Positions 10,090 through 46,937 of a stretch of 64,000 bases of DNA are shown here, piece after piece; within the stretch, counting starts at the first letter, position 1, and each line of letters begins with the position of its first letter. Source of the stretch: Buddleja alternifolia. Taxonomy: Eukaryota > Streptophyta > Magnoliopsida > Lamiales > Scrophulariaceae. The position numbers and the translations under genes are program-made. The notes under the pieces are model-generated. The model saw nothing but the letters and a program-made list of their open reading frames with translations, made no database searches and was not told the DNA's origin. Where the stretch lies: the NCBI GenBank assembly GCA_019426215.1, contig CM033394.1, forward strand, positions 21,906,195-21,970,194, read 5' to 3'.

Positions 10090-10091
10090 CT

Positions 10092-17392: not shown

Positions 17393-18625
17393 ATGGCGCC
17401 ACCGAAATCTTCACCTGTTGCCGAAAAATCTTCCAAACCAATGGGTTTCAACGCAGGGTTCCTTCTCAACTGGGAATACCTGTTCAATAACCAGAACTTT
17501 CCGATGAGAGAAATTCTTACTCTCATTGACAAATCCGGCTTGAAAAATCTTCTTACCTCTCATTCTCTTTTGCATGAGGATGAATTTAAACACTTTTTCA
17601 TTAAAAAATGTTGTCATTTCTGCAGACGGCAACTCTATCACCTGCTCATTCCCATCTATTGAAACTCCTTTTGTTCTTACTACCAAATTGCTTGCCGATC
17701 TTCTGAAACTGCCTTTCGATGGATGCATAGTGGAAGAAGTGGGCATGGGTACTTCTACAAAGGTGTGGGAAACTGTTCGGCGTGAAGCAGCTCAGGATGA
17801 CTACAAGTCAAATTTCAAGAAAAATGACATGAAGGACGAGTATGTCATTCTGGAGGACATTTGTACTAAGATGATCGAGTGCAGAAAAGGTTCTTTTGAT
17901 AAGGTTTCAATCGTGCAATTCAAGATGATGATCGCAGTGTTGACCAAGCTGAAGGTCGACTGGGCGTTGTACGTGTTCAATCGCTTTAAGGCAGTAATGC
18001 AAGAGTTCGTCAATCCCAAGCCTTATGGGATTTTTTAAAGTTTTTTTTTGAGCGCTTGTGGATTACCTACGCCCCAGGGATCTAAAGTGCCAGCGACCAA
18101 GCGAAGCTCACATGATGGGCGAGTTGCTCCATCCTAAGCGTTGCGATGGTGCAGCTGTTCCAAAAGACGAACGTGAGCGTCTTGCCGAAGGACAAGTCCG
18201 TGGTGATGATGAGGATCAAGCGAGTTCTTCCTCATCAGATGAACCTGAAGAAATTATTGTTAAGAGACCCAAGAGAAAGGTCACTGTGAAAGTCGCTGAG
18301 CCATCCCAGCCAGCAAATAAACAAAAGAAAGAAAAGAAAGAGAAAAAGAAGAAGGAAAAGTCTCCATCCCCCCCCCCCAGGAAAAATCCTTCTCCACCTC
18401 CAGCGACTACCATTTAGACAGAGACGGAAGAAGAAGTAGAAGTGCCGCTTGCTCGTAAATGCATACCCTGGTCTACTCCCAGAGGTTCAACAAGCACTCC
18501 CGTCGAACGAGCGCTTGAAGAATCCTCGAGTGTCCCTCCTCCTCCTCCACGTTCTGATCCAATCGCTGAACCAATCACAGAGCCCGTTCCTGAAGCTCTC
18601 TCGATAGAGTTAGATAGTGATTGAG

Positions 18626-18704
18626 GTAAGTACTTGTCTTAGACAATGTATATTATCCTTTCCTTGTGTTTTTCTTTTTAACGCTAGGATAAATTTTCTT
18701 TCAG
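18626..18704 (+). other. Candidate 79-bp intron 1 in element B 3' ORF
   Basis: The 5' border is TGAG|GTAAGTAC. The 3' border is TTTTCTTTCAG|CCTAT with a pyrimidine-rich tract. Element E has an 81-bp intron at the same place with the same style of borders. The unspliced reading meets a stop at the donor (TGA), while the downstream segment is homologous between B and E. Confidence 0.72.
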
Positions 18705-18884
18705 CCTATAGAGAATATAACATCCAGTTTGTTCTGAATACTCTAGAAGGATTCAATATTCTTATACGTGCTGATCCCCTCACTTCTTTACCCCTTGAAG
18801 TTGAAGAAGTTCCGGAGCCTGAGGCTATGGAAACTGAAGTTCCTATAGTTGAAGCGACTACCATAGGCGAAGATAGCCCTCAGG

Positions 18885-18964
18885 GTAAGCGTTTACGTAT
18901 TTTTTATCTCTAATTTCTACTTAGTAAAATTTTTTCCCATTTCTCAAATGCTTGCATGTATCAG
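18885..18964 (+). other. Candidate 80-bp intron 2 in element B 3' ORF
   Basis: The 5' border is CTCAGG|GTAAGCG and the 3' border GCATGTATCAG|CTCAAAG. It is phase 1, and splicing creates GCT (Ala) and continues in frame into QSSQDADAP. The same position and phase are seen in E (80 bp), A (84 bp) and C (85 bp). Confidence 0.75.
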
Positions 18965-19506
18965 CTCAAAGTTCACAAGATGCTGATGCACCTCCATCTT
19001 CAGAGGCAGACCTTGAGTTGGACGTTGATTTATCAACGGTGGTGGAATTCTCTAGAGAGTTAGACACAGTCCTTCCAGACGCTGAAATCTCATCAGCCAA
19101 GGAAGCGACTATGGATGCCGAGCGATCGACAGAAGTGGCCGAGATTATCCCCAAACCAACTGGTCCTCCTCCATAAGCAATCAGTTTCTTTCCCAGAGGC
19201 TATACTAAAGATTTAGAATTTTACAATACCTGGAGAGGGACGACGCTTTAGCAGCTGATTGAAATGGAACTAAATTTTCAAACTACCCTCCACAATCCGG
19301 CTCTCTCAGACGCTCAAAAGACGATCATATTTGAGACGCTTGCCAATAATGGAGTAACAACGATGAAATATATTATTGCTCGCTTGGAGTATTTGGAAAT
19401 TCCACAGAAAGACCTGGCAGACTTGGAGAGCAAACGCTTTCACGAAATCGGCAAGAGCATGGAACGCAATTATTCATTCCGTTGAACTCATGTCCAGATA
19501 AGAAAT

Positions 19507-21011
19507 TGTTGGTCCCAAGTGGCATACGAAAGGGTCTAGGAGGGGGGGTTGAATAGACCCTGAAGTCTTTTTTGACTTCAAAAGATTTCGTACTAAAAGG
19601 TTTTTTGGATGCTTGAAATGTAGACGCTTGACTGAGTGTTTACCTTGAAATATAGACGCTTAGGTTAAGCGTTTGATGAAGACTGTTTTTTTTTAGAGAG
19701 TTAACTTAGACTTCAAGATTTGAATACTTTAACCGAGTGGGCTTAAGCGTTCAGTTCTTTAACCAGTGTTAGCACAACGGAATGATTTTTCTAGTCTTCT
19801 TTTGAAAGCTTTAGCGTCACAAGAAGTTTCTTAGTTGCTTAGCGTTTGATTGAGTTTTACTTAATCAGTTTAAGCAATGATATGATAGATAAAAGAATTG
19901 ACTGAAAAGTAAATGACACAATATTTGTAAGGTTCGTTGGGTGATGTAATCCCAACTACGTCCTTCTTCTTCTAGAACACTTGAAGGCAATCCACTAAAA
20001 TAATTCTCAAAGAATCACACAGAATCTTCTACAAAATAGGGAGAGATAGATGTCGATGACTTGAGATCCTTGATCACACAGATTTCTACTCCAAATCACT
20101 TCAATCCCCTTGCTTCTTTCACCCAGAAATAATGCAAGTATCCAACTTCGACTTCACACAGATCGCGAGGCTTGGATGGGGTTTTCTAAAACGGTTTGTT
20201 TGATTTTGATGAAGTTCAAACAACTGGAAATATCTCAGTAGGAATGTTTGAGATATTTGCTGATTGTCTCAGGAATTGAAGAAAAGCAAAGAGAATGTTT
20301 TCTTAGATATTCTGGTTTTTCTGGGAGTTTAAGGAATGAGACTTCAATGCAACAGCAATTTGGCTTGGAGATTGATTGTTGTATTATTTGGCTTGTTGTT
20401 GAAGTCCTATTTATAGGCATTCTTGGAGAAAGTGTCCGTTTGACACATGCACAGGCGCGTGTCTCTCACTTCCGCGAGTGAACAACTTTTGTCCTTTTTC
20501 CTGAAAATCTGCTGCACAGAAGTTGGTGCTGCAGTCTGTGAAAGTTCATAGTCCAATGGGGTGGCTTCTCCGTACGCCTGAAAGTGCTTATCACATTTAA
20601 TGCATTTGAATTAAATACCCGTTGGTACTTAATGCATTGAGAGTATTTGCATTAAACTCCTTCTGGACTTAGAAATAAATTCAGGTGAAATCACTTTTGT
20701 CCTATAAGGTAACGCTTGATATAGCTGGTCAATTGGACGCTTGGAGACTTTATCTTCATTCAGAATTCAGGCGCTTGAGTCTTCGAACTTTACCATTGAT
20801 AAACTCACTCAGAAATCATCAGACGCTCAGCCTAAGACTACTTAGCCTAAAAATCTAGAATAAAATAAAACAAAGCCTATTAAACCTATTACAAGTCTAA
20901 CGCTTCAAAGCTTATACATAATTTTAACTAAAATCAAACTTACATATTTTGGGGTCTTAACAAAAAGTCCTAATTGTCATCATCAAAACATCTAACATGA
21001 AATTCCTAACA
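19507..21011 (-). repeat. Element C 3' LTR (1505 bp)
   Basis: In element orientation it runs from TGTTAGGAATTTC at 21011 to ...GGGACCAACA at 19507. A TATA box (TATAAATA) lies at 20415-20408 and a conserved GAAGTC/GACTTC hairpin near 19562-19579. The polypurine tract directly to its right shows that it is the 3' copy. Confidence 0.95.
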
Positions 21012-21026
21012 ATTTCCCCCTTTTTG
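21012..21026 (-). other. Element C polypurine tract
   Basis: The minus strand reads AAAAAGGGGGAAAT directly before the LTR start TGTTAGG. This is the plus-strand primer site for reverse transcription. From 21027 to 21242 there is a 3' untranslated stretch without features I can name. Confidence 0.85.
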
Positions 21027-21242
21027 ATGATGGCAATACTTACTCTTTTATAGTTCAAGAGTTAGACAGCCAAAATAAGAGTTAGCTTTAATTAGATAAC
21101 GTTAGTTAAAGAAAGTTATGCTTCAACGAGATGTTTCAGCTGAAAAATGCATTTTATATATATCAGTGATTACAAGCATTTTTACAACTAAACAAACAAA
21201 GGTATACGAGACAAGAATATAGATAATGCAGATCAAAAGGCT

Positions 21243-24200
21243 TTAACGTCTTGGTCTAACTTTGTATCGCTTGGGCACTTCAGCTCGGATAGCTTCAGTT
21301 AGATTATCTTCCAGAGTCATCATCGCTTCATGATCTTTGTTGATTATAAGCTTATTTTCTTCTTTTTGTCTCTTCTTGAAAGCAGTAAAGTGAATGTCCC
21401 AGTCAGTTGGGTCGATACCAATATACCTTAGGCAGATTTTGAAAGCTTGGATGAAGTCAGTCAACTTCCTCTCTTCGGCTAAGATTCTTGGATCTGTAGG
21501 TTCTGGAATAGATGTTCTTTGAAGAGGGATGTCGAACTGTTCAAGTAGTGCCTGAGAAGGTATTGGAAGATTTGGATATAGTGCTTGTGGGGTTTCTATT
21601 AGCGTTCTACTAGACGCTCCAGCTGAAGCACTTACTTCAGAAGCAGTTATCCACGAGGGGAGACTAAGCGCAGAAGGAGAAGGTAAAACTTAACGCTTAG
21701 GAGATGGACGCTCTTGAGCTCTTGAACTAGACGCTTTCCTCTTTTCTCCTTTCTTCTTCTTTTCCCCCTTATTGCCACCATCAAACTTTAGAAAATGATC
21801 TGTGAGTAAACTGACCTAATAAGCAATCTGAGACATAGAATCTGTGATGTCATCCAGACGCTTGTCGAAGCGTTCCTGCAGAGCGAGGAGCTTGGCGCTG
21901 GTAGCATCATTCAGAGAGGTCTCAAGGGTTTTAAGGCGCTTTTCAAGCTCTTCTTTCATGGCAAGTTGGGTTGCTTGAGTGGCATCATGCATTTCTTGAA
22001 AGTCTCTTGTTTGCACTCACCAACAGCCGCTTGAGCTGAACTATGCATATGAGCAATCTGAGCGCTCATAACGTGAGTCTCAATCTTAGCCAAATCGTCT
22101 TTAATCCAGTGGAGAGATTCTTCGTTCTAAGTAGCATGGGCACTGATATTCTCCAAAACGGATTTGAGCAAAGGACCGAAAGATTGACTCTCATCTAGAC
22201 GAACTGCTTGAGAAGTCGGTCTCTTGAATCTGGATGAATGTTTGAGAGAGTCAATGGGAACTCGATATGCGGGATCAAAGACAGTACTGCGTATGTCTAT
22301 AGAGAGATCCTCGTCAATATCATCAGCAACGGGTTCAGGAGCGTCAGGAATATCCTCTGGTGGAGACGCTTGAACGGGTTCTTCAGCAGACGCTGGAATA
22401 CTTGTAATTTCAGACGTGAACGCTTCAACTGACTTAGCAGACGCTGACTCAAGTTGACGAAAGTCATCGAATTGGAAGTTCCAACTTGCTAAATCGGCAT
22501 AAGAGATGGATGCAGCGTCCAAAAATTCAGTGAGTCTGGTTCTGGAAATACATGTACCGGAAGTGAATGTGCGAAGTGGACTATCAATGGACCTGATGTG
22601 CATTTGACCAATGATATATAGCACATAATTCGGGAAGACTTTGGATGGCGCTTGACAGATGCAAAAGATTGAATCTGGGCAGTAATGTCTGGAAAATCCA
22701 ATCAAGCAGTCAGAAGGAAGAGACTTAGGACGCCGATTTTCAGGTACACAATCAGCATAGTACTCTTCTAGATATGGATATATCGCTTGAGCGAGCTCTT
22801 GATTTCTTTCAAGCAGGGAGAGGACAAACTCATAATGACTGAGTACCTCGCTGCGGATAGAAGGGAGCAGTGGATATCCTTTGAATGAACTGATTACTGA
22901 ACCGTTCCAAGGTCTGAGATTGGCAGTGAAGATTCTATCGAATAGAGATAAGGGAGTCATAATCTTTACCATCAAATTGAAATTGTCTTCGTAGTGGCTC
23001 GGAGCAAAATTCAAGCATGATACAAAAGAGGTACCACTGGAAGATGTTTGAGCGTTGAAAAGAAGAGGAGTAATGGACAATCTGTGAAGCCCTTGATGGA
23101 GACACTGTTCATTTTGATGTCTAACAATTGGGAGCTTTAGAACAGGTCCGACTCTCTGTTGACGCTGCTTGAGGCAATACTTAGCGAACTGACGCTTCTT
23201 GTCATGCATGCCTATGCCAAATAAATGGGGAGCTTGGACTAACTCTGAGAATGTATATTTGTGTCCCATATACGCTTCAACCCAGTTGACTTCATTCATG
23301 CAGTAATCTGTTCCAGCAGTGACCATAGCGCAAATGCCTTCATGATGAATATCTCTGATAGATTCAAAGTGATATCTATCAGGCTGATAGTTGGCATTCC
23401 AGACGCTGTCAAAATATGCATCAGCTTCAGTCTGAAGCAAGTCTGTCAATGATTCAAGACGCTCACCGGCATGAACTGCTTTATTCTTCCACAGACGAAG
23501 TGGATTGACTGAAGATAGATTTTCAATACTATGAGCAGTCTGAGGAAAATGTGTGTAGCCTTCTCTGTTTGAGACTGACTCTGAAGGATTGAGAAAGCTT
23601 GGACGAAGAGGCTCATACACACGAATGTTGTGATCCCTTAGAGCGAAACCGGTTGGTTTGCTGTGCCCATAATCTAGATAGTATGCCAAATCCACGTCAC
23701 ATCTAGGAGTTCTGCCTCCTTATCTGTCTTGTTGAAGAATAAGAGAAGACGGTAGTTAGCCAGGGGTCTTTCCAAGTTGAATTGCCAAATAGTACTCCCT
23801 CTCTATTTCTGTTAGTGCAGCGTTAAACATTGTATCCCTGATTTGACTGTCAATATCAATCAGCCGGGCAACGTCATTCTCTGCAGCAATGTATCTTTCT
23901 TCATTGTATCCTGCAGGAATGAAATCTTCTTCGAGCGCTGGGGGCATGTAGTTGATTGAATGATCAATTGTCTTCAGTGGGTCGAGTTTGAAGAAGTGCC
24001 TAGGCTCTGGAACGTCTTCAGCAACGCTCTGACCTTCTGAGCATGCCTCTGTTATAGCCTAAACAGAGATTGAAGTCTGAACCTCTTTAGTAGCAGGTTC
24101 CTCAGCTTCAATTGCAGCAACTTCTGCGGCAACATCTTGAGCAATAACCACAACTTCAGTCATCTCAACATCTAGGAGGACATCTATTGATGCTTCAGCA

Positions 24201-25499
24201 GCGGCTGGAACTATAGCTGTAAAAAAAAGAACTATCCTCTATAAGAGCAGGATCTTCTACAGATGTAGGAATAAAATTGCTGTGGGAAGAAATCAACTTA
24301 CCCTGAGAACTTGTCTCAACAGCAATACTTTGAGTGCTTGGCTCAACAACAACTTGAGCGCTTGGCTCAACAGTCTCAGGCTCTTCAGGAACTGGAACAG
24401 CTCGACGCTTGCTAATCCTGGAATGCCTGAAGATTTTCTTCACGTTGACTCCTTCAATGAGCTTAAACGTTGGAGCGGAAGGATCAGCAACTGGTTCTTC
24501 AAAGTCTATCTGTTTGGTGATCCCTTCCAGCTTCCTCCTCTTGAGAGGTAACTTGTCCTTTGCATCCTCATCAGTTTCTTCATCATCTTTTTGAGGAGAA
24601 GGGACAAATTGAGCCTTGGGCTTTTTGGAAGCCCTCTTCTTTGTTGCAGTCGGACGCTTTACGGTTTCTTCTGGCACAGGACGCTCCGCTTCCTCATCGG
24701 ACGCTTGACGTACTTCCAGATGCTCAGAAAGTGGTTTAGCAGCACCACCAATTTTGGGAGGATTGAAAAGATTATTCAGAATCCTTCGTCCCAGCAACTT
24801 GGTCTTATTCAACGGTAGACCAGATGAGTATACACACTGTGATTTGTACAGCAGGTCACTGAGAACAAGCCCATAAGGTTTATTCAAGGCGCTTAAACAG
24901 TCCCGAAACCTTCCAAATATGTACTCACTCTAGTTGATCTTGATGTTGAGGAGTATAGCAGTCATCATCTGAAATTGTACTGGGTTTACCTTATCAAAGG
25001 TTCCCACTCGGCATTCTATGATCTTGCTGCAGAAATCAGCCAACAGTCGGTATTTGGATACCAAATCTTTCTTTTCAAAGTACTGAGTGTAGGGTACATC
25101 GTCGTACGCACTCATGGTTGTCCATGCTTCCTTGATTTGTTGTAAAGTAACACAATCCAATGCCTCACCCTCATTTGGAAGATTGAAGTTCTTGGCAATG
25201 GAGGCAGTAGACAAAGTAAATTCCTTGGGAGGCTCCTTCTTGGATAGAGGAATTACACAAGAGATAGACTTCTTGTCCTCTGAAAGTTTAGCAGTCTTCC
25301 AGAAAGTGTCGACTTCAGTTGGAAACAAATAGGAGTATTGGATCAAGAAAGGTTTAAGCCCAGCTTTGACGACCATGTCCATCATGTCTGTTAGATTGAT
25401 CTGAGGTTGTTCATACAGGAATTTCTAATCGACAACAAGGCCTTCAGTAACCTTGATGGTAAGTTCGGCAGAAGTAGACGAAGATTTCTTTGGTGCCAT
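21243..25499 (-). pseudogene. Element C extra 3' ORF (about 4.26 kb), intron-containing, broken
   Basis: This is the only copy in the window with both ends present and no insertion. It starts at the ATG at 25499 (MAPKKSSS). It has the conserved N-terminal domain (to about 24830), a Lys/Glu/Pro-rich middle, a candidate intron at 24301-24217, a second conserved region (23950-22440, including YHFESIRDI and MHDKKRQFAKYCLKQRQ), an acidic tail, a heptad-rich coiled-coil-like part (22016-21816) and a basic C-terminus ending at 21243. Lesions include TGG to TAG at 25425-25427 and 24930-24932, frameshifts near 23730 and 22130, and further stops. Coding length would be near 1390 codons, far larger than the roughly 650-residue env-like proteins I recall for SIRE1. 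The function is unknown. Confidence 0.75.
24217..24301 (-). other. Candidate 85-bp intron in element C 3' ORF; removal restores the frame
   Basis: Minus strand borders are CTCAGG|GTAAGTTG and TTTTTTTTACAG|CTATAG, with a strong T-run before the acceptor. Read through, the frame becomes SSFFYSYSSSRC and then stops. With the 85 bp removed, Gln is followed by GCT ATA GTT CCA GCC GCT, matching the downstream frame (A-V-P-A-A-A-E-A type) seen in element A. This is the strongest single case for real splicing in the window. Confidence 0.75.
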
Positions 25500-26371
25500 T
25501 TTTAGTGAAAAGGGGTGAACTGAGATTTTCTTTTGCTTTGAGAGAGAGAGAGAGAGAGTAAATTTGCAGAGATTTTTGAGTAAGAGTAAATGATTTTTCT
25601 GCAGAAATTGTGTTTTAAATGACAGAGGTTAATTTTTGAAACTTGTGTTCTCTTATCTCTGTAGGATTCACACACGTGTAAAGAGTTTTAATCTCAGCCA
25701 TGAATTCATTAACTGCGGTCGCGAGTTTTGTGTAATAGAGAGAAGTTACATTTGGTAATTCTCATATAAAGATTTGACATCCGAGTGAAAATTTTAAAAA
25801 CATTTGGCATTTTCAGAGTGTAACGCACACGCCTGTTTGTACACTGACACGTACACAAACACGTGCTATCTCTGAACCGTCATTTTGAAAAAGTTTTTGA
25901 TTACCCGCCAGTTTGATGTGATAGAAGTGTGTGAATAGAGTACACAATAGACTGTTGAGTCTATCCACTACTTCAAGAAGCGTGTAAAATTTATGCATGC
26001 CTTTTTAAAAGCATTTTTATATTAAGTGTTGAATGGAATAGTTTCAACGCTTAATTTGATACCATTGGTTGGTATAACATTTCTTGGTATTTATTATAAC
26101 TGTTGTAATATAGACGCTTAAAGTCAATTTTTTTTTATTTTTTTGGTTTAGCGTCCAATATATTATGCAAAAATAATACTGAGCATTGATGATCATGCAT
26201 CTGAAAATTTTGACCATTGACGCTTACAGTTATGTTCAAGTACAATTTTAAGGTTCCCCCTAAATTTGATAACTTGTACCATTTGTTTTGTTTTTCAAAG
26301 AAAGCTTTTTAGACATAAATCATGTGGATTCCCCCTAAATTATATGTCTACTAAAGTATGATGATTGATGA
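25500..26371 (-). promoter_or_regulatory. Element C pol-to-3'ORF spacer
   Basis: Minus-strand spacer. PPT-like AGGGGGAA motifs lie at about 26336-26329 and 26262-26255. A (CT)n leader run lies near 25540-25560 on the coding strand, CACGTG near 25672 and 25860, and a weak TTTATA-type motif near 25766. No other gene is visible. Confidence 0.4.
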
Positions 26372-29607: not shown

Positions 29608-29893
29608 TCAACACGGGAAGTTCTATTTCTGTTTAGGTACCCATTGGTGCTTGGGTCCTTTAACATTAGTAACATTGTTAGTTTGAATTAGATCTTTAGG
29701 AACCCATATTTGCCTAGTCTTCATTGTAGAAATATTGGCCTTTTTGGATTTTACATTGTGTTGTGTGTGCTTTTTGTTCACCTTGTGCTGTGTGTGCTTT
29801 TTGGGTGTATAATAATATGCTCGATTATAATAACAATCATAATCATAGTCATAATCATAATCATCATAGTAGTGATAATATGATCTAGACCTC
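29608..29893 (-). pseudogene. gag: Element C gag C-terminal tail, cut by element D
   Basis: This is the last stretch of gag on the minus strand: the Tyr/Asp-rich low-complexity segment (29810-29880), then basic KKHTQ and the WVPK-containing end, finishing in TAG at 29623-29625. The frame then continues AAC TTC CCG TGT TGA into the pol ATG. The rest of gag and the 5' LTR are absent, because element D starts at 29894. Confidence 0.8.
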
Positions 29894-31809: not shown

Positions 31810-31815
31810 AGTTTT

Positions 31816-31833
31816 TGGCGCCGTTGCCGGGGA
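31816..31833 (+). other. Element D primer-binding site
   Basis: TGGCGCCGTTGCCGGGGA lies six bases after the LTR end. This is the primer site commonly seen in Athila/Tat gypsy elements and usually assigned to tRNA-Asp. Confidence 0.85.
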
Positions 31834-31970
31834 CTTTTTCATTTTAGTTTTTGATTCTTTTTGTTTAAACTTTCATAATTCTTAGTTTTTCGTTTATTTC
31901 TAACCTTTCTTTTATTTTATTATTCTAATTTTTTTTCTTGTGTTTATTTGTTAGGTGTAATTTGCGGTGC

Positions 31971-33590
31971 ATGACCCGCTCTTCTAACGAGCCCCTATAC
32001 AATTTTGAGCCGGAGATAGAGCGTGTTCTTCGATCTAGTAGACAAGCTCGAGAAATGGCCGACAATCTAAATCCAAATGGGAATTTTCCCGACATAAATC
32101 TTCCGGAAAACAGGGAATGGCTGCAAAATCTTTTCCAAGCTATGCAACCGGCACCTCCTCAAAGACTTCCATCGGTCCGGGAAAGTCTACCTCCAAGGGT
32201 CCACACCATACCGGGGCCCGTAGTCTTTCAAATTTCTTTGCACCAAATTATCACATTCCGTCACACATCTTTAGCATGGTGCAAAGCGAACCCTTCTATG
32301 GAGAGCCCCATGAATCACTTCATGAGCATTTGGAGACTTTAGACGATACTCTCATGACTACCCAATTTCATCCACGGGATCTCGATGCAATTCGTCTAAG
32401 AGTCTTCCACTTCTCATTAAAGGAAAGGGCGACCATGTGGTACAAATCTCTACCACCCCAATCCATCACAACATGGGGACAATTGGTCGATGCCTTTTTG
32501 AGCAAATTCTTTCCACCCTCCAAAATCAATGAGCTAAGGAGCAACATTAAGGAGTTTAAGCAGGGGAATCATGAGTCCTTAGCCGAGGCATGGGCTAAAT
32601 ATAAAAACATGCTCCGAAAATGTCCGGATCACAACCTAAGATTGAGCGAGCAAGTATTACGATTCCATGATGGAGTCCGTTCGCGCATCCAAAATAGGCT
32701 CAATGTTGGCGCCGGTGGTGATCTCCTTGGGCTCGATTGCCAAAGTGTGTGGGACAAGATTGAGCAATTAGCCCGAGAAGATGAACTCTATCCCGATGAT
32801 GAAGAAATCACACCCACTAAAAAGATTGCTTGTGTTCAAGAGTTGGGCGAAGAAGTTGCTTTGGAAACAATGGTTGGCAATGTAAACCATGTTGGAAATG
32901 CCAATCGACCTCAATTGAACTTCCATGTGCCCGAAAATTTTCCAAGGAGGCCCAATCCGGCACAAAATGCCCATCCCGGCGTCTAGCAAGCACCAAGGCC
33001 CCCATTCAACAATAACCAAGCTCAAAGGCAAGGTAATCCTCATATACAAAGGCAAATAAGACCTCTTACAACCGAAGAGCGTCTCGATGAACAAATAAAG
33101 AAATCGGATTCAGCAATCAACGAACTCCGTACTATGATGAAGGATATAATGATGGACATGAAGGATTTAAAGACACAAATGGGTCAAATGGCAAAGGCGA
33201 TCAGCGAGAGAGCCCCGGGAACTTTACCAAGTGACACAGAAAAAAACCCGAAGGAGCAATGCCACGCCATCACCTTAAGAAGTGGCAAACAGATAGTCAA
33301 TGATGTTGTTCGCATTTCCGCGCCCGAGCGCCCCGATGAGAACGCCCAGGCGCCGGAATCAACCCATAGTGAACGAATGCTTCGCAATTGCTCGCCCGAG
33401 CGTCCCGATGATCATGCTCAGGCGCCCGAGACCCAGCGCCCTGGCGCCGATTGTCGCGCCCAGGCGCCTCCTCCTGAACCCTCCACAGCGGGCTCTTCAA
33501 ATCCAACGCATCCTCCCATCGAGGTCCGTCTGCCATTTCCTAATGCACATAGAATGAAAAAAAAGGAGATGGATCCAAGTTTCCTTCGAA
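31971..33590 (+). pseudogene. gag: Element D gag
   Basis: The best start is the ATG at 31971 (MTRSSNEPLYNFEPEIERVL). A frameshift near 32190-32230 moves the frame into that of the ORF from 32117. The retrotransposon Gag domain follows (YGEPHESLHEHLETLDDT ... ATMWYKSLPPQSITTWGQL ... FFPPSKINEL), the Athila-type capsid protein. TAG at 32984-32986 replaces a Tyr codon that is intact in element G. Beyond it lies a helical stretch ([17 protein letters not shown]) and a Pro/Arg/Ala-rich linker with repeated AQAP/PERPD words, encoded by CGCC-rich repeats (33320-33480). I see no CCHC zinc knuckle. The frame continues into pol without a stop. Confidence 0.88.
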
Positions 33591-36500
33591 TCTTAGCAAT
33601 TCTTCGTGAGGTTAGGATTAATATTCCTTTTATAGACGCAATTTTACAAATGCCAAATTACGTGAAATTTTTCAAGGATATTTTATCCAACAAACAAAAG
33701 TGGGAGGAAAACAAAACGGTGTGCCTAACCGAGGAATGCTCCGCCGTATTGCTTAATAAATTACCAATGAAACTTGAAGACCCTGGGAGTCTCACTATTC
33801 CTTGCACGATTGGGCCATTATCCTTCGAAAAAGTTTTGTGCGACTCGGGAGCTAGCATCAACCTCCTCCCGTACTCTCTTTTCAAAAAGTTGGGCCTTGG
33901 TAACCCAAAGCCGACTTCAATGAGCCTCCAACTTGCCGATAGATCAATCAAGAGACCACGGGGAATAATCGAAGATGTAATCGTTCAAGTCGACAAATTC
34001 TACTTCCCGGTTGACTTTGTGGTTCTTGATATGGAGGAAGATGTTGAGGTACCCCTGATCCTAGGAAGACCATTCCTAGCCACTGGTAAGGCGGTAATCG
34101 ATATTGCCAATGGTAAGCTAACCTTAAATGTGGGAGATGAAAAGGTCACCTTTGATGTTTTTAAAGTGCTTAAACACCCATGTGATCCTGACTCATGTTT
34201 ACGCATCGATGTATTTGATATGTTGATTGATGAGACTTTTCAGGCACAAATGGTAGATGACCCATTGGAGACATGTCTTTCCAAATCTATGGATGTCGAT
34301 TCAGCGAGTGAAGAACAATTGGAAACCATGTTTAGCATAGAGAAGCCACCTCTTTACCACGTCATTGGAGCTAAAAAATTAGAAAGATCACTCTTGGCTC
34401 CTCCTCGCCCTTCTATCGAAGAGGCCCCTATCCTTGAGCTTAAACCATTACCATTACATTTGAAATATGTATTTTTAAATGATAATGAGACTCTACCTTT
34501 AATTATGTCATCTTCTTTGACAGGAGAACAGGAGGAGCGACTCATGAGAGTATTGAAGGCCAACAAAAAGGCCTTCGAGTGGAAAATTGCGGATATAAAA
34601 GGCATAAGTCCAGCAGTGTGCATGCACAAAATACTCATGGAGAAGTCCGCAAAACCTACACGCCAACCACAAAGACGGTCAAATCCACAAATACAAGAGG
34701 TGGTAAAGAAAGAGGTTATAAAACTACTCGATGCAGGTATAATCTATCCTATCTCTGATAGTGGATGGGTAAGCCCGACTCAAGTAGTACCCAAGAAGGG
34801 CGGAATAACTGTGATAGAAAATGCGAACAATGAATTAATCCCTACTCGAATGCTTACCGGGTGGCGTGTGTGTATAGATTATCGCAAGTTAAATGATGCC
34901 ACTCGTAAGGACCATTTCCCCCTCCCATTCATTGACCAAATGCTTGAAAGGTTAGCCAGACATGATTTTTATTGTTTTCTAGATGGGTATTCCGGCTATA
35001 ACCAAATTGCCATAGCCCCCGAGGACCAAGAGAAAACAACTTTCACTTGTCCCTATGGCACGTTTGCTTATAGGCGGATGCCGTTTGGATTATGCAATGC
35101 CCCGGCCACATTTCAACGATGTATGATGGTGATCTTTCATGACATGGTTGAAGAATTCCTTGAGATTTTTATGGATGATTTTTCTGTTTTTGGAACCTCA
35201 TTTAACACATGTCTTGATCATTTGGACCGTGTTCTAAAACGCTGTGAGGAAACAAATCTTGTTTTGAATTGGGAAAAATGTCATTTTATGGTCCGGGAAG
35301 GGATTGTGCTAGGTCACAAAATCTCCCGAAAAGGGATTGAAGTGGACCAAGCCAAGATTGAGGTAATAGAAAAGCTTCCTCCACCTACATCGGTGAAAGC
35401 CGCGAGGAGCTTTCTTGGTCATGCCGGCTTCTATAGGCGATTTTTCAAATTTTTTTCCAAAATTGCAAAGCCGTTATCTAACTTGCTTGTCAAAGATGCA
35501 CCATTCAATTTTGATTCCTTTTGTTTACAGGCCTTCATGACTCTTAAGGAGCTATTGATATCCGCTCCCATCATGGCACCTCCCGATTGGAGTTTGCCTT
35601 TCGAATTGATGTGTGATGCTAGTGACACCGCGGTGGGTGCGGTCCTTGGCCGAAGGAAGGTTAAGGTATTTCAAACCATCTACTATGCTAGTAAGACTTT
35701 AAATGATGCACAAATGAATTACGCAACCACGGAAAAAGAATTACTAGCCATAGTATTTGCATTTGACAAGTTCCATGCTTATCTCATTTTGAATAAAGTA
35801 ATTGTGTACACTGATCACTCCGCATTAAAATACTTGCTTGCTAAAAAGGATGCCAAACCTAGACTCATTAGGTGGATTTTACTTCTTCAAGAATTTGACA
35901 TAGAAATTAAGGATAAGAAAGGAGTAGAAAATGTTGTTGCCGACCACTTGTCTAGGATAGAGATTCCTAAGCCTGAGTGCGTGTTTGATAAACCTATTTG
36001 TGAGGAGTTTCCCGATGAGCAATTGTATGCTATACTTCATAATGATGCTCCTTGGTATGCCAATTATGCAAATTATCTTGTCACGGGAGTTCTTCCTCCG
36101 GATATCACTTACCATCAAAAGAAGAAATTCTTATTTGATGTGAAGCGATATTTGTGGGACGAACCATATCTATTTAAGATTTGTGCAGATGGTCTCATTC
36201 GACGATGTATCCCCGAGGAGGAAATAGCATCAATTCTCGCCCATTGTCATGATATGTCGGTAGGTGGTCACTTTGGACCCTCTAAAACAGTGGCTAAAGT
36301 GCTTCAATCAGGTTTCTTTTGGCCTACTCTTTCTAAAGATGCATTCTTGTATGTTCAATCTTGTGATAGGTGTCAACGAACAGGTAAGATCTCTAAAAGA
36401 CACGAAATGCCATTGAATAACATGCTTGAATGTGAACTATTTGATGTATGGGGTATTGATTTTATCGGACCCTTCCCTAGTTCTTGTTCCAATAAGTATA

Positions 36501-37333
36501 TTCTTGTTGCGGTCGACTATGTCTCTAAATGGGTCGAAGCTGAGGCTTTACCAACTAATGATGGTCGGATGGTTACTCGATTTTTAAAAAAAAGGATTTT
36601 CACTCGTTTTGGAACTCCTAGAGCAATCGTTAGTGACGGGGGCACCCATTTTTGTAACAAACAATTCGAGCACTTACTGAACAAGTAAGGGGTACGGCAT
36701 AAAATCTCAACCCCATATCATCCTCAAACGAGTGGTCAAGTGGAGGTGTCGAATCGGGAGATTAAACGCATTCTTGAAAAAACGGTTAACGCATCTAGAA
36801 AAGATTGGTCCCTTAAACTAGATGACGCCTTGTGGGCATATAGAACCGCGTTTAAAACTCCGATTGGCATGTCCCCATATCGCCTTGTCTTTGGAAAAGC
36901 ATGTCACTTACCGGTTGAGCTCGAACATCGCGCTTTTTGGGCTATTAAATTTCTAAATTTTGATTCTCAACTCGTAGGTACCAAGCGATTACTCCAATTA
37001 CACGAACTTGAGGAATGGCGCCATCAAGCGTATGAGAACGCCAAGCTTTACAAGGAGCGAACGAAAACATGGCATGATAAGCGTATTATTCCCCGAGAAT
37101 TTCATGAAGGAGACAAGGTTTTACTATACAATTCTCGCCTTCGACTTTTTCCCGGGAAGCTCAAGTCAAAATGGTCGGGACCATTTGTTGTATCTCGTGT
37201 GTATGCTTCTGGTGCCATTGAACTTATAACGAATAATGGACGAACCTTTACGACAAACGCCCAAAGGTTAAAGCATTACATTGGGATTGACGGGTCGAGG
37301 GATAAAGTGACCACTCCCCTCCAGGAGCTTTAG
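33591..37333 (+). pseudogene. pol: Element D pol (gypsy PR-RT-RH-INT), one stop
   Basis: Continuous with gag. The protease has CDSGAS at about 33839-33857. Reverse transcriptase spans about 34600-35300, with [10 protein letters not shown] near 34980 and FMDD near 35170. RNase H spans about 35590-35950, with MCDASD near 35610, TEKELLA and TDHSAL. Integrase has the H-H-C-C zinc region at 36235-36375, then D (GIDFIG, near 36455), D (SDGGTHF, near 36635) and E (GQVEVSNRE, near 36745), ending at 37333 without a chromodomain. The only break is TAA at 36686-36688, where G has a Tyr codon. It lost function recently, but the element also lacks most of its 3' LTR. Confidence 0.92.
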
Positions 37334-38989
37334 CGATTCTTTATCTCAAGTCGAGCTACCGACTCTAAACTAGCGCTTCTTGTGAGGCAACCCAAGTTTG
37401 TAAGTTTGTTTTTCTTTTTGTTTTTGTTTTTGTTTTGTTTAGTTTGTTTCTTTTTATTGTGTTCAAGCATGCACTTTTGGCATGTATGTTTTTCTTATGC
37501 TTGATGGTTTAAAAAGTTGAAGTGTTAGATATGATGCACATTTGGACCCCACCTTTGGAGATTCTTATTTTACTCGATAAGAGGAGAAACTTTGTAAGGA
37601 TGCATTGGAAGCTTAAGGATGTTCTTCAATATCCTTGGTTGTAAGTGTTCTTTTTACCTTTGTGTATGCATGTTGTAACAACATTGGGGACAATGTTGGA
37701 TTTAAGTTTGGGGGTAGAAGAGTATCTATTTTGAATATTGAAAATGCAATCCTAATTTTTAACTTGAATTTGGGGAAAGTTTGTTTGATATCATGTTTAT
37801 ATGCTTCTTTGTTGAGAAAATCAAGCATGAAAAAAATTTTAGTCCTTCCAATTGATGCATTGAAATTGATTGACTTGGAAAAATGGCATGAATTCTTGAA
37901 ATAATCTGAATTTAATGGAATATATATATCTTTGAAATTGCTCGTGGAGACCTTAGACTAGAATTGATTCTTTAGATGATTCACAATGCACTTAAATCGA
38001 AGGTAGAGGAGTTGAGAGGATAACCATCTTAAGACACTTAAGGAATTATTTCCAGAAATATTAACTTAGATTTCTCATAAGGTTATAAGTTGAGTAGTAA
38101 TTTTATATGCTAACAATGAATTGAAAAGGTTGAATTTTGGTATGACCAAAAGTGGTCAGGCTAATACGTACCGGAGGTGAAAAGTTTCATGCCTATATAC
38201 TGTACTATTATGCTAATTTGAGCTATGCTCAAGCCAAAAGAAGTGAGTTGTTTAAAAGATCTAGTTTTATTTCGTGGCCTTTGATACTCGAGTGATTAAA
38301 TCCTTAGGAGTGTCTCTACACTTAATGCCCCAAAACTATCTAGTTTGGGAGTCATTGGTCTAAAACTTGTTACATGGGTGTCATAGAAAGTCTAATGGAA
38401 TAAAACATTGCACATGATCTAGCCTTAATGAAGTTTAATGGAAATTCCATATGAATTGAATGTTGAATTTTTGAGATAATGAAATTTAAATGGCTATGAG
38501 ATTTTCTATAATTCTTGTGCCTTGTGTTTGATCAAAAGTTGATAGATATGGGATTAATGTCCAAAATTTGGTAAAGATGCCTCTCGACTATAATACCCTA
38601 AATTTATTTTTCACTATACCCTAGGGAGTCGTTTCAAGTATTGGTGTCACATGAGCAAAAGTAGTTGATATGTATATATATATTTGTGAACTTTAAAAGG
38701 TTGATTTTATGCCATTCATTCTTGTTGATCATATTGAGATGTGTTGATTCGGTTGGGATTGAAAATTTGCTAGATTTTGTGGGTATATCTTATGCAAACC
38801 CTCACGAGACTATAACTCGTCCTTTGAGGTAACTCAAAGGTTTAAAGGCTTGTTGCACCCGCTAAGTGCAATCGTTTACTCCACGAAAGTGAGTTAGTTA
38901 GTTGTTTTGTTTTCTCCCATTGAATGATGTTGGTCTTGCCTTATAGCTCTTATTGCTCTAGGTCGAGCAATTGATAAGTTTGGGGGTGT
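37334..38989 (+). other. Element D 3' noncoding region with hairpin and two polypurine tracts
   Basis: 1.66 kb without a convincing gene. CATTGGGGACAATG at 37682-37695 can fold into a 5-bp stem and is followed by AAGTTTGGGGGTAG, a polypurine-like tract. The terminal tract AAGTTTGGGGGTGT lies at about 38977-38989, directly before the LTR start at 38990. Element G keeps the hairpin and a paired tract. Unlike G, D has no extra ORF here; the 89-codon ORF at 37635-37904 is not conserved. Confidence 0.7.
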
Positions 38990-39308
38990 TGATAAGAGGT
39001 GTTTTTACGTGTTTTTAAGACCGTAATTCTTATGATTTGGATTCACTTATTGCTTAAATCATGTCACATTTGCATTTAATAGGTGTGTTAAGTGAATACA
39101 GGTAATAAATGAGAATACATGAAGAAAAGGGAAGAAAAACGATGTACAAAACAAGTTCAAGCATGTTTTTCAACACCTAGGCGGTTAATGCATCTCCTAC
39201 CACATTCGAGCGATATTCCGTACATTTTGAGACCGACTTAGACAAAGTTTCCTTATACAAAGTTTTAGATGTATGTCTTAGCTTCAAATGGGAACTTGAA
39301 ACATTCAA
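38990..39308 (+). repeat. Element D 3' LTR, truncated to about 319 bp
   Basis: It matches the first part of the 5' LTR from TGATAAGAGG to about ...AAACATTCAA, then stops matching. After a few bases (gcatgt) the sequence is the end of element E (ATTTCCCCCTTTTTGATGATG). About 1.6 kb of LTR is missing. Confidence 0.88.
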
Positions 39309-42297
39309 GCATGTATTTCCCCCTTTTTGATGATGTCAAGACTTTTAACTCTTAAAACTCTTTTATAGATTTAAGAGTTTTTAAAGAAAAGCCCAAATAA
39401 AGTATAAGTTAGCATTTGACAAGTTAGTAAGGTTAGCTAATGTTACATTAGCCTCAACAAGTTGTTTCAGCGATAAATCATTCATTTATGTAGAAGGATA
39501 AGCATACATGATTTATATTGATAATTGAAAGCGATAAAAAAAAGAGATAAACACATTCATTTTTTCTGTCGCTTTGCTCTTTCTTCACCTTGATAGATCT
39601 CATTTTCTAAGTCCATAAGGAGTTGATCAATATCTATCATGGTGGTATGTTGGAGTTCATCATAGTCACGCCTTCGTTTTTTAGCACTTTTATTTAATTC
39701 CAACAACCTTTCCACCCATTCCCTTGGAGGAATACCAACTTCACGAATTAAGTCGTGATAGATGTCTTGTCTTCTATTATTTGATGGTTTCCAGTTGATT
39801 GGCCTTCTAAGCGGTCCAGCATAAAGATGAAATCCCATACTTTCCAAAAATTCGACGTCCAAGTTCGGAAGCAAATACTTTCCTAGATAATGTCTTGGCT
39901 TTCTCTTTTTAGTTAGTATTTCTTCAAACATTGATCGCTAGTGTTTATTATTTGTTTTAGATATTGCTTTGGACGCTTGATGCTTTTCTTTCTCCTTTTC
40001 CCCCTTCTTGGCATCATCAAGAGAGGTTTTCAAATCAGCGACTTCTCTTCGCAAGAGTCGAACTTCTTCAACTAAGAGAACAATTTGTTGAGCGATGCTC
40101 TGAGCAGCGGCATCGGTCGAAATATGTCTTTCGGCATCAGCCGAAGCGCTCTGAGCTAAGTGACGGTTGAATTCGGATGACAGTTCAGCGACAAGTGGTG
40201 ATATGCTTTTCATGATTGTAACAGTGCTTTTATTTGCAGCGTTTGCAATATCACGACTTTGCGTATGAGACACTATTCGGATATGTCTATCAACAGCCTC
40301 AAAAATCTTGGAGCAAGAACCCTCAATGTTGGTGAGCGAGTTCCGCACTGCCTGTCTGAAATCTCTAGTTTCTGAATCACTCTCAGAATCCGAATCGGAA
40401 GAAGGACGCTCAGGAGATGGAATGAGTCTGTAAGAGCTACAAACTGCATCTTTGCCTTTGGATTTCTCTCTGATAAATGGCTCTTCAGGCTCTTAAGCAA
40501 TTTCAGCGTGCACTTCTTCAATCGCTTGATCCATTGAAGGATCTTCGATCGCTGGGGGCTCGACTACAGGGGCGCTAAAAGAATCTGGCAAAGAAGCCTC
40601 AGAAATTGGAGCGACTTCCTCAGTAGGAGCAGTATCTGGTTGAACAATTTGGATTGGGGGAGAAGGTTCTGCAATAGCAATGACCCAGAGTGGGCCAAGT
40701 GCTTCCAGCACATGCCTTGGACTAATCAGGCTTGATTGCGAAATAAAGAATATAGTGTCTTCGCGCTCTTCTATACAAAGTGCAAGTTGCACACCTTCCA
40801 GCAATCCTATTCCTGAAGTATAACACTTGAAAAAGTCCAGAATAAGAGGCATTAGCGCTTGAACTGCTGTTTGATCCAGTGGACTAATTAGCGAAATCAT
40901 CTTGGCCACTTGAATGTTCTGTTGACTGAAGAGCACAGGGTGTAGATTGTATCCTCTGAAATTGCTTAACCCTGAGTAATGATTAAAAGAGATGTCCAGC
41001 GCTTGGGCATTTTCTATCACTGCTCTCATTTCTCTGTGGAAGACAGCAAACTCAACATGCTCATTTCAAACATCAACACGAATTTGACTTTGACCGGGAA
41101 GAAGCGGTTGTTTGCTGGATGAGGCTTCTTCGTTGAGGTCAGGAAAGACACGTTGAACAAACGCTTGACGAGGATGCAAGATGTAGCGTCCGCCTTGGCT
41201 GAATAAGGCTAGCTGCTGGCGAATGTAGGTTTCTATTAGTTGCATGTAGCGTGGTAAGTCGCTGACATTGCCTGCAAAGTGCTGACGCTGTTGAAGCAAA
41301 AAGGTCGCGAATCCTCGGCGTCTGTTTGCAATTCCAAATTCAAACAAAAATGGATATCTTATGAGTTCGTCAAGGGAGTAGAAATGAAGAACGAACTCTT
41401 CAGCCCATCTGGCTGTACTTATCATCCATCTTTTTCCAAGCTTATCAGCTTTCGTTTGATCTTTTCTAGCGGCTAGGAATTTCTCGAAGCGCTCGATCTC
41501 TTCGTCATAATCCTCTGTCCATAATCTGGCAAGCTATTCTTGGGCTTCATCTTCTATCCACGAATACACTGGATTGGGACGCTCAGCCACAAGCGGTCCT
41601 TTGCCTTTCCATAACTTGAGTGGAGTAGGAGAGAGAGCATTCTGAGGAGAGTTGACTACTGAAGGTAGAGCCGAATATCCTATTTTGTTTAGATCTTCCT
41701 CATCAGGATTTTTGTTCCAATCGCCCATGTGGGGATTCTTGAAGATAATTTTGCTGGCTCGAAGATGATAGAAAGACTCGTCTGAGCGACCGGTGAAATT
41801 AAACCATGTTTGGTCAAAATCTGCTCTATTGAACACTGGTCGACGAATATACTCAAAGCGAGATTGGAGTCGCTCCAAGTTGTAGAGTCCTAAATCGGTA
41901 AGATGCTCAAAGAATTCAAACTTTTGGGTGTTGGAAAGATCAGGCCGATGGAGAGTTGTTTGAAAAGTGATTTCTAGATTTGCAAGCGTCTGGGTGTCTC
42001 GTTCTCTAGCGGCATAATAAAATTCAAGATCAGGAGTATATCCACGAGGAAAGAAATCGATGACACGAGGAGGAGGTCCTGTTGAAGTAGGTACAAGGGC
42101 CATCGCTTCTGTTAGGATGGGGCCCACTTCTATCGACCTCTCAGCATGTAAAGTCGCTTCACTAGTTGAAGATGTTTCAGCGTCCGGAAGGGCTTGAGAT
42201 GCTTCTTTTGCAATATCCACAACAGTTTCCATATCCACATCTACTTCAACTGGAATCTCGGAGAGTGGAGGAGCATCAGCGGTTGGTGCATCTTGAG

Positions 42298-42377
42298 CTG
42301 ATACATGCAAGCGGTTGAGAAGAGCAAGCAAAATTTCTACCAAGTAGAAATTACAAGGAAAAGACTAAAACGCTTAC
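42298..42377 (-). other. Candidate 80-bp intron 2 in element E 3' ORF
   Basis: Minus-strand borders are CCTCAGG|GTAAGCG and GCATGTATCAG|CTCAAG. It is phase 1: the joined codon is GCT, continuing Q-D-A-P in frame. Unspliced reading stops shortly after the donor. It is collinear with intron 2 of B. Confidence 0.78.
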
Positions 42378-42563
42378 CCTGAGGAATATCATCGACTGAC
42401 TTTGTCGCTTGATCTGTTTCTATATTAGGGACAGGTTCCTCAGGCTTCGGAACTTCTTCTTTTGGTTCTAAATCGAGAAAAGAAGTTATTGGATCAGCAC
42501 GAATGGGAATACGTAATTCTTCAAGAGTGTTGAGAACATATTCAAAACTCATTTCACATTGTG

Positions 42564-42644
42564 CTGAAAGAGATTTTATCCTAGCGTTAGAGACTTAGAA
42601 ACTAACGAGGAAAGGACAGACTAATTTGCTTAGCAAATACTTAC
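42564..42644 (-). other. Candidate 81-bp intron 1 in element E 3' ORF
   Basis: Minus-strand borders are CTCAGG|GTAAGTATT and CTCTTTCAG|CACAATG. It is phase 1: splicing joins G with CA to give GCA, then Q-C-E-M-S-F-E-Y in frame with the next ORF. Unspliced, the frame ends in a stop inside this segment. A putative branch-like CTAAC-type word (TCTAACG) lies upstream of the acceptor. Confidence 0.75.
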
Positions 42645-43913
42645 CCTGAGCACTAGAAAGCCTCTCAGATTGAGTAGCGGCTTGAGGATCTGAGCTAATT
42701 TCAGGAACAACGTCAGAGGGTGGAACGCTCGCTGACTCTCCAAGCGCTGGATTTGCTGAAACGCTTGTAGACGCGGCTGGAGTAGAGAGAGGAGAACGCC
42801 TTCGGGCAAGCGGTACTTCTTCTACTACTGCTTCCTCTTCTTTTGGAACTGAGAAAATAAACGCTGGAGGAGGAGAGGGTGATTTTGGAGAAGGAGAAGG
42901 AGAAGGAGATTTTTGTTTCTTCTTGGGCTCCGGCTTCTGCTTCTTCTTTGCGGGCTCCGGTTTTTTTTTTGGCTGACTTGGCTGGCTCAGCGACTTTGAG
43001 AGCGATTTTTCTTTTTGGTCGCTTAACCACCACTTCTTCTTCAGACGAGGACGACGATGAAGAGGAAGACGCTTTCTCTTCATCATCGCTGCGAAAAACT
43101 CCTTCGGCTTGAAGTCGCTCACGCTCTTCTTTGGGAACCGCTGCACCACCTCGCTTTCTTGGTTTGAGCAGCTCGCTAATTATCTTCTTTTCATAAAACT
43201 TCGGCGCTGGGATCATCTTTCCAGCGGAATTGGTGTAACCGCTAGCGCTAAGAATTCGACTTAAAACAATCCCATAAGGCTTGGGATTAACGGACTTGGC
43301 CATCGCTGCTTTGAAGCGATTAAAAACATAGAGAGACCAATTAATCTTCAATTTGGTCAGAATGGCCACCATCATCTTGTATTAAAAGGTTTGTAACCTT
43401 GTCGAAGCTTCCCTTTCTGCATTCGATCATTTTGGCGCATATGTCCACAAAAATGACATATTCACCCTTCATGTCGTTCTTCTTGAAATTGGGTTCATAG
43501 GTAGCTTCAACTTCATCTTTCTTGATCAATGCCCAAACCTTGGTAGCATCTCCAAGAGTAACAGTTTCAACTTCAACACCATCGTTTGGTAAGTTCAGTA
43601 AAGATGAAATCAGAGAGGGAGTGAGAATGAAGGTCTCACGGGCAAAAGGAAAGACGCAGGAAATGGAGTTTCTGTCGTCGGAGATTTTTGCATTCTTGAA
43701 GAAGAATAGGGTCTCTTCCTCAAAGAAGTTGAAAATAGTAATTAACATATCATATAAACCAGACTCCTGGACGAGTGGAAGAACAGTCCTAAGAGGGAAA
43801 TTCTGGTTATTGAATAGATAGTCCCAGTTAACAAGAAAACCAGCATTAATAGTGACTGGTTTATCTGGTTTGGAAGATTTTCCGGCAGCAGATTTTGAAG
43901 ACTTCGATGCCAT

Positions 43914-46935: not shown

Positions 46936-46937
46936 AG

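What the first reader, a model, noticed from the sequence alone, without database searches (positions are those of the whole stretch)
17393..43913. Spliceosomal introns in the extra 3' ORF of Sirevirus-type elements
In four different elements (A 2507-2424, C 24301-24217, B 18626-18704 and 18885-18964, E 42644-42564 and 42377-42298) the 3' ORF contains 79-85 bp segments with CAGG|GTAAG-type donors and T-rich CAG acceptors. Where checked (both E introns, B intron 2, A and C) the segments are phase 1 and the exons join in frame. In E both introns, and in C the single intron, must be removed to keep the ORF open. Copies this decayed would not keep matching borders by chance at the same site. Introns are known in Ogre-type gypsy elements; I am not aware of introns described in the env-like ORF of copia elements. 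Retention in the genomic RNA and removal in an ORF mRNA would resemble retroviral spliced messages.
Basis: partly seen in the sequence, partly recalled or inferred. Interest (0 to 1): 0.87.

Follow-up and report, generated by a model that had tools for sequence, protein, structure and literature searches.

The report
Spliced introns in plant retrotransposon ORF
An extra gene near the end of an abundant plant jumping-gene family is interrupted by short introns that the cell very probably cuts out, because the same genome holds copies in which exactly these pieces are missing.

Summary
The six segments exist as stated: GT-AG, 79-85 nt, phase 1, ranking 1, 2, 16, 22, 86 and 87 of 16,595 candidate GT-AG pairs in the window. 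The deciding evidence lies outside the window. The host genome holds 12 E-type places without intron 2 and 17 C-type places without the single intron; the free spacer of the search pattern had one length throughout, that of the predicted junction. In the 12 E-type copies intron 1 is exactly gone (3), gone with an in-frame alternative acceptor 96 nt into exon 2 (6), or present (3). They are best read as spliced RNA copied back into DNA. Pol-derived sequence lies upstream in 10 of 12, so pol-bearing RNA was probably spliced. Corrections: the C/A segment is 84 nt and open in frame in 30 of 31 rows, so C's need for removal is a quirk of that copy; introns differ less than the ORF exons, not more. 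A G-box and a TATA-like box precede the ORF in all five window copies, suggesting an own promoter. No RNA was seen. The papers found describe no introns in this ORF.

The parts
42645..43913 (-). E: 3' ORF exon 1 (ATG at 43913), with a frameshift
42564..42644 (-). E intron 1, 81 nt, phase 1, one in-frame stop; exactly absent in 3 of 12 intron-2-less genome copies
42468..42563 (-). part of E exon 2 (96 nt, 32 codons) missing together with intron 1 in 6 of 12 intron-2-less copies; alternative acceptor ending at 42468 (CTCGATTTAG|)
42378..42563 (-). E exon 2, 186 nt
42298..42377 (-). E intron 2, 80 nt, phase 1, length not a multiple of 3; exactly absent at 12 genome places
41534..42297 (-). E exon 3, first part (open to 41534; the ORF goes on, decayed)
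17393..18625 (+). B: 3' ORF exon 1 (ATG at 17393), decayed
18626..18704 (+). B intron 1, 79 nt, donor GAG|GTAAGT, 3 in-frame stops
18705..18884 (+). B exon 2, 180 nt
18885..18964 (+). B intron 2, 80 nt (79-82 nt in 21 B-type rows)
18965..19505 (+). B exon 3, decayed and cut off by the neighbouring LTR
24302..25499 (-). C: 3' ORF exon 1 (ATG at 25499)
24217..24301 (-). C single intron (place of intron 2), 85 nt; exactly absent at 17 genome places
21805..24216 (-). C exon 2 (homologous to exon 3 of B/E), decayed
2508..3703 (-). A: 3' ORF exon 1 (ATG at 3703)
2424..2507 (-). A single intron, 84 nt, open in frame
1..2423 (-). A exon 2, decayed, cut by the window edge
3817..3883 (-). A promoter-like pair: CACGTG at 3883, ATTTAAA at 3823
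25614..25678 (-). C promoter-like pair: CACGTG at 25678, ATTTAAA at 25620
17214..17267 (+). B promoter-like pair: CACGTG at 17214, TATTTAAA at 17260
44027..44077 (-). E promoter-like pair: CACGTG at 44077, TATTTAAA at 44034 (TATATA in 14 of 17 E-type rows)
53196..53246 (+). F promoter-like pair: CACGTG at 53196, TATTTAAA at 53239, before the cut-off ORF start at 53362
   Evidence: positions 53239 and 53362 counted by hand on the sequence
19506..21021 (-). C 3' LTR (19506-21012) with a polypurine octamer AGGGGGAA at its edge
45438..46949 (+). F 5' LTR (45438-46936) and primer binding site TGGTATCAGAGC at 46938

Best explanation
The 3' extra ORF of these SIRE-type (Sirevirus) copia elements is a split gene. 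Host spliceosomes remove U2-type GT-AG introns of about 80 nt, all in phase 1. B/E-type ORFs have two; A/C-type ORFs have one, at the place of the second. Intron 1 has two competing acceptors 96 nt apart, so the ORF can be made with or without 32 codons. Introns persist because most transposing RNA keeps them; now and then a spliced or partly spliced pol-bearing RNA is copied and leaves an intron-less element. Shown from sequence: exact absence of the segments at 12 and 17 places, the three outcomes at intron 1, and pol-derived sequence upstream of most intron-less E-type copies. Inferred: that the absences are reverse-transcribed spliced RNA, that a promoter in the linker (G-box plus TATA-like box) makes the ORF message, and that unspliced RNA is favoured for transposition.
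For: Intron-2-less E-type places: 12 hits, control 0. The pattern fixes both exon edges and leaves 0-6 bases free; the free part was 2 bases in 12 of 12 (GC in 11), as the predicted junction demands. Intron-less C-type places: 17 hits, control 0, 3 free bases in 17 of 17 (GCT in 14). Alignment of the 12 fetched E-type copies confirms it: intron 1 exactly absent in 3, absent with the alternative acceptor in 6, present in 3. Pol-derived sequence upstream in 10 of 12. Trees on exon-1 columns: the intron-less label needs 4 changes (E-type, 41 rows; 2 forced by well-supported branches) and 8 (C-type, 41 rows; 3 forced). Stops: E2 in 31 of 31 rows, E1 in 29 of 31; B1 in 21 of 21, B2 in 15 of 21, with B2 lengths 79-82 while exon 2 is 180 or 186 nt in 18 of 21. 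The exon after C's intron is homologous to the exon after B/E intron 2 (HHalign E 8.7e-17, 28% identity), so position and phase are shared across a deep split. Six high-ranking sites; T-richness. Promoter-like pair in 5 of 5 window copies; of 22 CACGTG strand-sites in the window, 6 have a TATA-like box 30-75 nt downstream: these five and one inside F's LTR.
Against: No RNA was seen. The A/C segment is open and in frame in 30 of 31 rows, so those elements can also be translated unspliced. Some copies have lost a border by decay: AG is gone in 4 of 31 C rows, 3 of 31 E1 rows and 2 of 31 E2 rows, GT in 0, 1 and 2. Intron-less copies are more clustered in the trees than shuffled labels (4 against 10.7; 8 against 10.6), so some share one event. 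Within families there is little codon-position bias, so copies mostly show decay after insertion. Intron interiors of A/C and B/E do not align. How common spliced copies are is unknown: the counts of intron-bearing sites by the same anchors did not complete. A strict promoter syntax was found in 17 of 29 C-type, 16 of 29 E-type and 11 of 20 B-type stretches; the C-type G-box is only middling among linker hexamers in conservation.
Confidence: 0.85

Rival explanations
1. Splicing mainly concerns a short ORF message from the linker promoter; intron-less elements arose when reverse transcriptase switched templates between that message and unspliced genomic RNA, or by gene conversion.
For: Promoter-like pair 120-180 nt upstream of the ATG in 5 of 5 window copies; the E family carries TATATA in 14 of 17 rows. 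No donor of score 3.5 or more in the leader and gag start of A and F.
Against: Pol-derived sequence lies upstream in 10 of 12 intron-less copies, which needs no switch if LTR-driven RNA is spliced. Three copies lost intron 2 but kept intron 1, as partial splicing of one RNA would give. Neither point excludes switching.
Confidence: 0.25
2. Retrovirus-like subgenomic message: a donor in the leader joins an acceptor just before the ORF, and the inner introns are removed from that message.
For: In the window copies a TACAG or TGCAG lies about 100 nt upstream of the ATG (F by eye); as an acceptor it scores 2 or more only in B (5.1).
Against: No donor of score 3.5 or more in about 800 nt of leader plus gag start in A or F, against 4.0-7.0 for the six introns. 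Only two copies could be tested. The CAG also fits a transcription start behind the TATA-like box.
Confidence: 0.1
3. The segments are ordinary coding sequence that decayed in some copies.
For: The A/C segment is open in frame in 30 of 31 rows and 84 nt long in 30 of 31.
Against: Exact absences at 17 C-type and 12 E-type places; stops in 31 of 31 E2 rows and lengths that are not multiples of 3.
Confidence: 0.02
4. Intron-less copies are the ancestral form and the introns were inserted later.
For: Intron-less copies fall in several subfamilies.
Against: L102 and L112 sit singly inside intron-bearing E-type copies, and C-type ones are scattered, so gain would be needed several times at the same base. 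The intron-2 place is shared by A/C and B/E. Alternative-acceptor copies lack 96 nt that the intron-bearing copies aligned beside them have.
Confidence: 0.03

Closest known systems
[quoted passage not shown]
   Same: Plant LTR element whose intron is spliced from only part of the transcripts
   Different: Other superfamily; the intron lies between polyprotein ORFs, not in a 3' extra ORF
BARE1 and EVADE (Ty1/copia) gag introns (PMC3735527 and PMC12786077, passages seen)
   Same: Copia elements with alternative splicing; the BARE1 intron is short and U-rich like these
   Different: There splicing yields a Gag-only message; [quoted passage not shown]
BAGY-2 / Athila env-like messages (Ty3/gypsy; known here only through passages of PMC2829016, PMC7264820 and PMC3735527)
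   Same: Splicing linked to a 3' extra ORF
   Different: A subgenomic message in gypsy elements; those passages do not speak of introns within the ORF
SIRE1 envelope-like ORF (passages in PMC2829016, PMC3414828)
   Same: Same lineage and same place of the extra ORF
   Different: SIRE1 uses stop-codon suppression right after pol; here the ORF is about 0.8 kb away and has introns. An internal promoter had been proposed for other Sireviruses

Membership tests
Sirevirus / SIRE lineage (Ty1/copia) | copia order: integrase before reverse transcriptase, gag with zinc knuckle | tested here: met
   F: gag 47398-48882 with zf-CCHC, rve 49280-50902, RVT_2 51264-52514
Sirevirus / SIRE lineage (Ty1/copia) | several polypurine octamers in the linker and at the 3' LTR (PMC2829016) | tested here: met
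   AGGGGGAA at 4427, 4498 (A), 26254, 26329, 21762, 21014 (C), 44660, 44727 (E); it also occurs elsewhere in the window. The G-to-A variant is reported for ToRTL1 and Tnd-1
Sirevirus / SIRE lineage (Ty1/copia) | sense extra ORF between pol and 3' LTR (74% of SIRE elements, PMC6317226) | tested here: met
   ATG at 3703, 25499, 17393, 43913 and 53362 (F, by hand); the 3' LTR itself is in the window only for C
Sirevirus / SIRE lineage (Ty1/copia) | clusters with SIRE in RT/INT trees | not tested
   no labelled reference set was at hand
U2-type spliceosomal intron | GT-AG borders, extended donor | tested here: met
   6 of 6 GTAAG and CAG
U2-type spliceosomal intron | U-rich against flanking exons | tested here: met
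   T excess 9-24 points over 52-nt flanks, 6 of 6
U2-type spliceosomal intron | branch point 18-40 nt before the acceptor | tested here: inconclusive
   YTNAY at -23 to -25 in A1, C1, B1, E1; none in that range in B2 and E2; the consensus is recalled
U2-type spliceosomal intron | removed from RNA in vivo | tested here: inconclusive
   no RNA seen; exact absence at 12 + 17 genome places is strong indirect evidence
Ogre-type intron | lies between gag-prot and RT | tested here: not met
   all six lie in the ORF downstream of pol
retroviral env-type subgenomic splicing | strong donor in the 5' leader | tested here: not met
   none of score 3.5 or more in A and F; only two copies testable

The most novel reading that the evidence does not exclude
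These copia elements run an RNA economy like that of complex retroviruses: one pol-bearing transcript is kept whole for transposition or spliced in several ways to give isoforms of an extra protein, and the introns are kept by selection although spliced RNA is repeatedly copied back into the genome. The extra protein may itself tip the balance towards unspliced RNA.
Probability: 0.2. Interest if true: 0.9.

Novelty: new variant of a known kind. Interest (0 to 1): 0.74.

Why it matters
How the extra ORF of Sireviruses, an abundant group of plant retrotransposons, is expressed has been open: stop suppression is known for SIRE1 and an internal promoter was only proposed (PMC2829016, passages). 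Introns in that ORF, with apparently spliced copies left in the genome, give a record of RNA processing that can be read from DNA alone. It also raises a testable question: why do introns persist in an element whose spliced RNA can be copied back?

Tried and rejected
Relatives in other collections: for the A ORF none scored E 0.001 or better among the 7,993 candidates scored (a capped list), none E 1 or better among 177 for its first 165 residues, and none in viral contigs or prokaryote genomes; for the C ORF none in viral contigs. Two structure models were of no use (mean pLDDT 37.7 and 33.0). No Pfam family reached its cut-off for the ten pieces scanned, nine of them ORF pieces. Intron 1 and intron 2 as copies of each other: rejected, interiors no more alike than shuffles. 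Exon 2 of B/E in A/C: not found. My first map took 10091-11654 and 19506-21012 as the LTR pair of B; orientation, the octamer at 21014 and the primer site at 46938 point to A and C. Introns slower than exons by constraint: only partly kept, because intron diversity is also lower within the C and E families, which a lower mutation rate of AT-rich sequence would explain. Papers: searches (lists mostly capped) showed none that, in the listings and passages I saw, describes introns in a SIRE or Sirevirus extra ORF; five older papers that I asked for are not held.
Full report
What is in the window. The window is plant DNA packed with decayed LTR elements. Four carry an extra ORF downstream of pol: A (minus strand, 5' LTR 10091-11654), C (minus, 3' LTR 19506-21012), B (plus, 11654-19505, without its LTRs) and E (minus, about 39309-45451, cut by F). 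A fifth, F (plus, 5' LTR 45438-46936, primer site 46938), keeps only the start of the ORF. They show marks of the Sirevirus/SIRE lineage: copia domain order, polypurine octamers AGGGGGAA in the linker, and the extra ORF itself. Their place in an RT tree was not tested.

The observation. In each of the four ORF stretches the best pair is a proposed one. The best pair reaches 5 bits in 28% and 10 bits in 1.4% of 900-nt stretches, so single sites are not all improbable and the comparison between copies carries the weight.

Copies in the genome. The window lies in an 853.6 Mb genome; the first looks gave 3170, 2858 and 2535 candidate places for the C, E and B queries, of which 40 were scored each. 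In 31 rows (E, B and 29 genome copies) the segment of E intron 2 is 80 nt in 30 and holds stops in 31; that of intron 1 is 81 nt in 29 and holds stops in 29. In 21 B-type rows intron 1 has stops in 21 and intron 2 in 15, and intron 2 varies over 79, 80, 81 and 82 nt (4, 5, 11, 1) while exon 2 is 180 or 186 nt in 18 of 21. In 31 C-type rows the segment is 84 nt in 30 and open in frame in 30. Decay has removed GT or AG in some copies: C segment 0 and 4 of 31, E1 1 and 3, E2 2 and 2.

Spliced copies. I searched the genome for the two exon edges with 0-6 free bases between them. E intron 2: 12 places, control 0, 2 free bases in all 12, GC in 11. C intron: 17 places, control 0, 3 free bases in all 17, GCT in 14. 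These are the lengths that exact removal predicts; shorter or longer gaps would have matched too. Exact matching makes both numbers lower bounds. In the 12 E-type copies intron 1 is exactly absent in L102, L104 and L105; absent together with the first 96 nt of exon 2 in L101, L103, L108, L109, L111 and L112; and present in L106, L107 and L110. The 96-nt case ends at TTTAG in exon 2, a site that scores 1.3 against 1.4 for the normal acceptor in E; 96 is a multiple of 3 and the split codon keeps its phase, so this reads as an in-frame alternative acceptor. In B the eight best-scoring acceptors include none at that place.

Origin of the intron-less copies. Pol-derived sequence lies in the next fetched stretch upstream in 10 of 12 E-type copies; about 500 nt between the two stretches were not fetched, but in the four that I checked by coordinates (L101, L104, L106, L112) the distance fits an uninterrupted element to within 20 nt. 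In L102 another LTR abuts inside exon 1, in L108 other DNA does, and in L109 the linker is patchy. The 12 fetched C-type copies all keep both exons and the ORF start; their pol was not fetched. Trees on exon-1 columns need 4 changes of the intron-less label in E-type (41 rows, 2 forced by well-supported branches; the bootstrap had not settled) and 8 in C-type (41 rows, 3 forced). L102 and L112 sit singly among intron-bearing copies. The labels are also more clustered than shuffles (means 10.7 and 10.6), so some copies share an event. Sister copies with different outcomes (L103 and L104; L101 and L110) suggest repeated events. The E-type sample of intron-bearing copies was chosen by likeness to E, so one group of eight intron-less copies lacks intron-bearing neighbours perhaps for want of sampling.

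Depth. The exon after the A/C intron is homologous to the exon after B/E intron 2 (HHalign probability 98.8, E 8.7e-17, 28% identity, starting 9 and 13 residues after the junction), while the intron interiors no longer align. Thus intron 2 probably predates the split of these ORF families. Exon 2 with intron 1 is not recognisable in A/C.

Rates. Between B and E the introns differ by K 0.26-0.28, like the linker (0.25-0.31) and pol synonymous sites (0.235), whereas the ORF exons differ at synonymous sites by 0.75 to 1.6, beyond correction in one piece. Intron differences are fewer than third-position ones (35 of 155 against 134 of 276; Fisher p 8e-8; interiors 32 of 109, p 6e-4). Between A and C the same comparison is weak (10 of 84 against 187 of 934, p 0.08). 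Within the C and E samples intron interiors also vary less than exons, in B less or about as much, with no codon-position pattern apart from somewhat more shared variation at third positions in B. Mutation bias therefore explains part of the slower change; constraint on introns is possible, not shown.

How the ORF is probably expressed. The ORF starts about 0.8 kb behind pol. In 5 of 5 window copies CACGTG lies 164-180 nt and a TATA-like box 120-133 nt before the ATG, F by hand count. Of 22 CACGTG strand-sites in the window only 6 have a TATA-like box 30-75 nt downstream: these five and one inside F's LTR at 46037. In the E family the box is TATATA in 14 of 17 rows and the G-box is kept in 16 of 17; in the C family ATTTAA is kept in 23 of 23 and the G-box in 20 of 23, the latter no better than many linker hexamers. 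The full syntax was matched in 17 of 29, 16 of 29 and 11 of 20 C-, E- and B-type stretches. No donor of score 3.5 or more was found in the leader and gag start of A and F. I infer an internal promoter plus splicing, with LTR-driven RNA spliced as well. The function of the protein is unknown; no Pfam family reached its cut-off.

Literature. The review PMC12786077 (passages) says that plant LTR elements generally lack introns and names Ogre and EVADE as notable exceptions; PMC3735527 (passages) describes the BARE1 gag intron; PMC2829016 and PMC3414828 (passages) give stop suppression and an internal promoter as routes for the Sirevirus extra ORF; PMC6317226 (passages) reports the 3' ORF in 74% of SIRE elements. 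Searches showed nothing on introns in this ORF in the listings and passages I saw; five older papers were not readable.

Noticed in passing
46037 + (F 5' LTR) and the five ORF promoters: The only other CACGTG with a TATA-like box 30-75 nt downstream in the window lies in F's LTR, so the putative ORF promoter may share the syntax of an LTR promoter.
   Followed up: partly
3' ORF exons of A, B, C, E: Synonymous divergence of the ORF exons is about 1.7 to 7 times that of pol between the same elements, as if the ORF had another history or mutation rate than pol.
   Followed up: no
L101, L103-L105, L108-L111: A group of eight intron-2-less copies forms a separate subfamily in the tree; whether it transposes as an intron-poor lineage is open.
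   Followed up: no
29894-39308: A gypsy-type element with short LTRs of about 320 nt (98% alike) and a long RT/RNase H/integrase ORF at 33134-36688.
   Followed up: no
56630-61411 -: A stretch 76% identical to the gypsy-type stretch at 32694-37419, probably a second such element.
   Followed up: no
A and C against B and E: Exon 2 with intron 1 is not found in the A/C ORF: either lost there or gained in B/E.
   Followed up: partly
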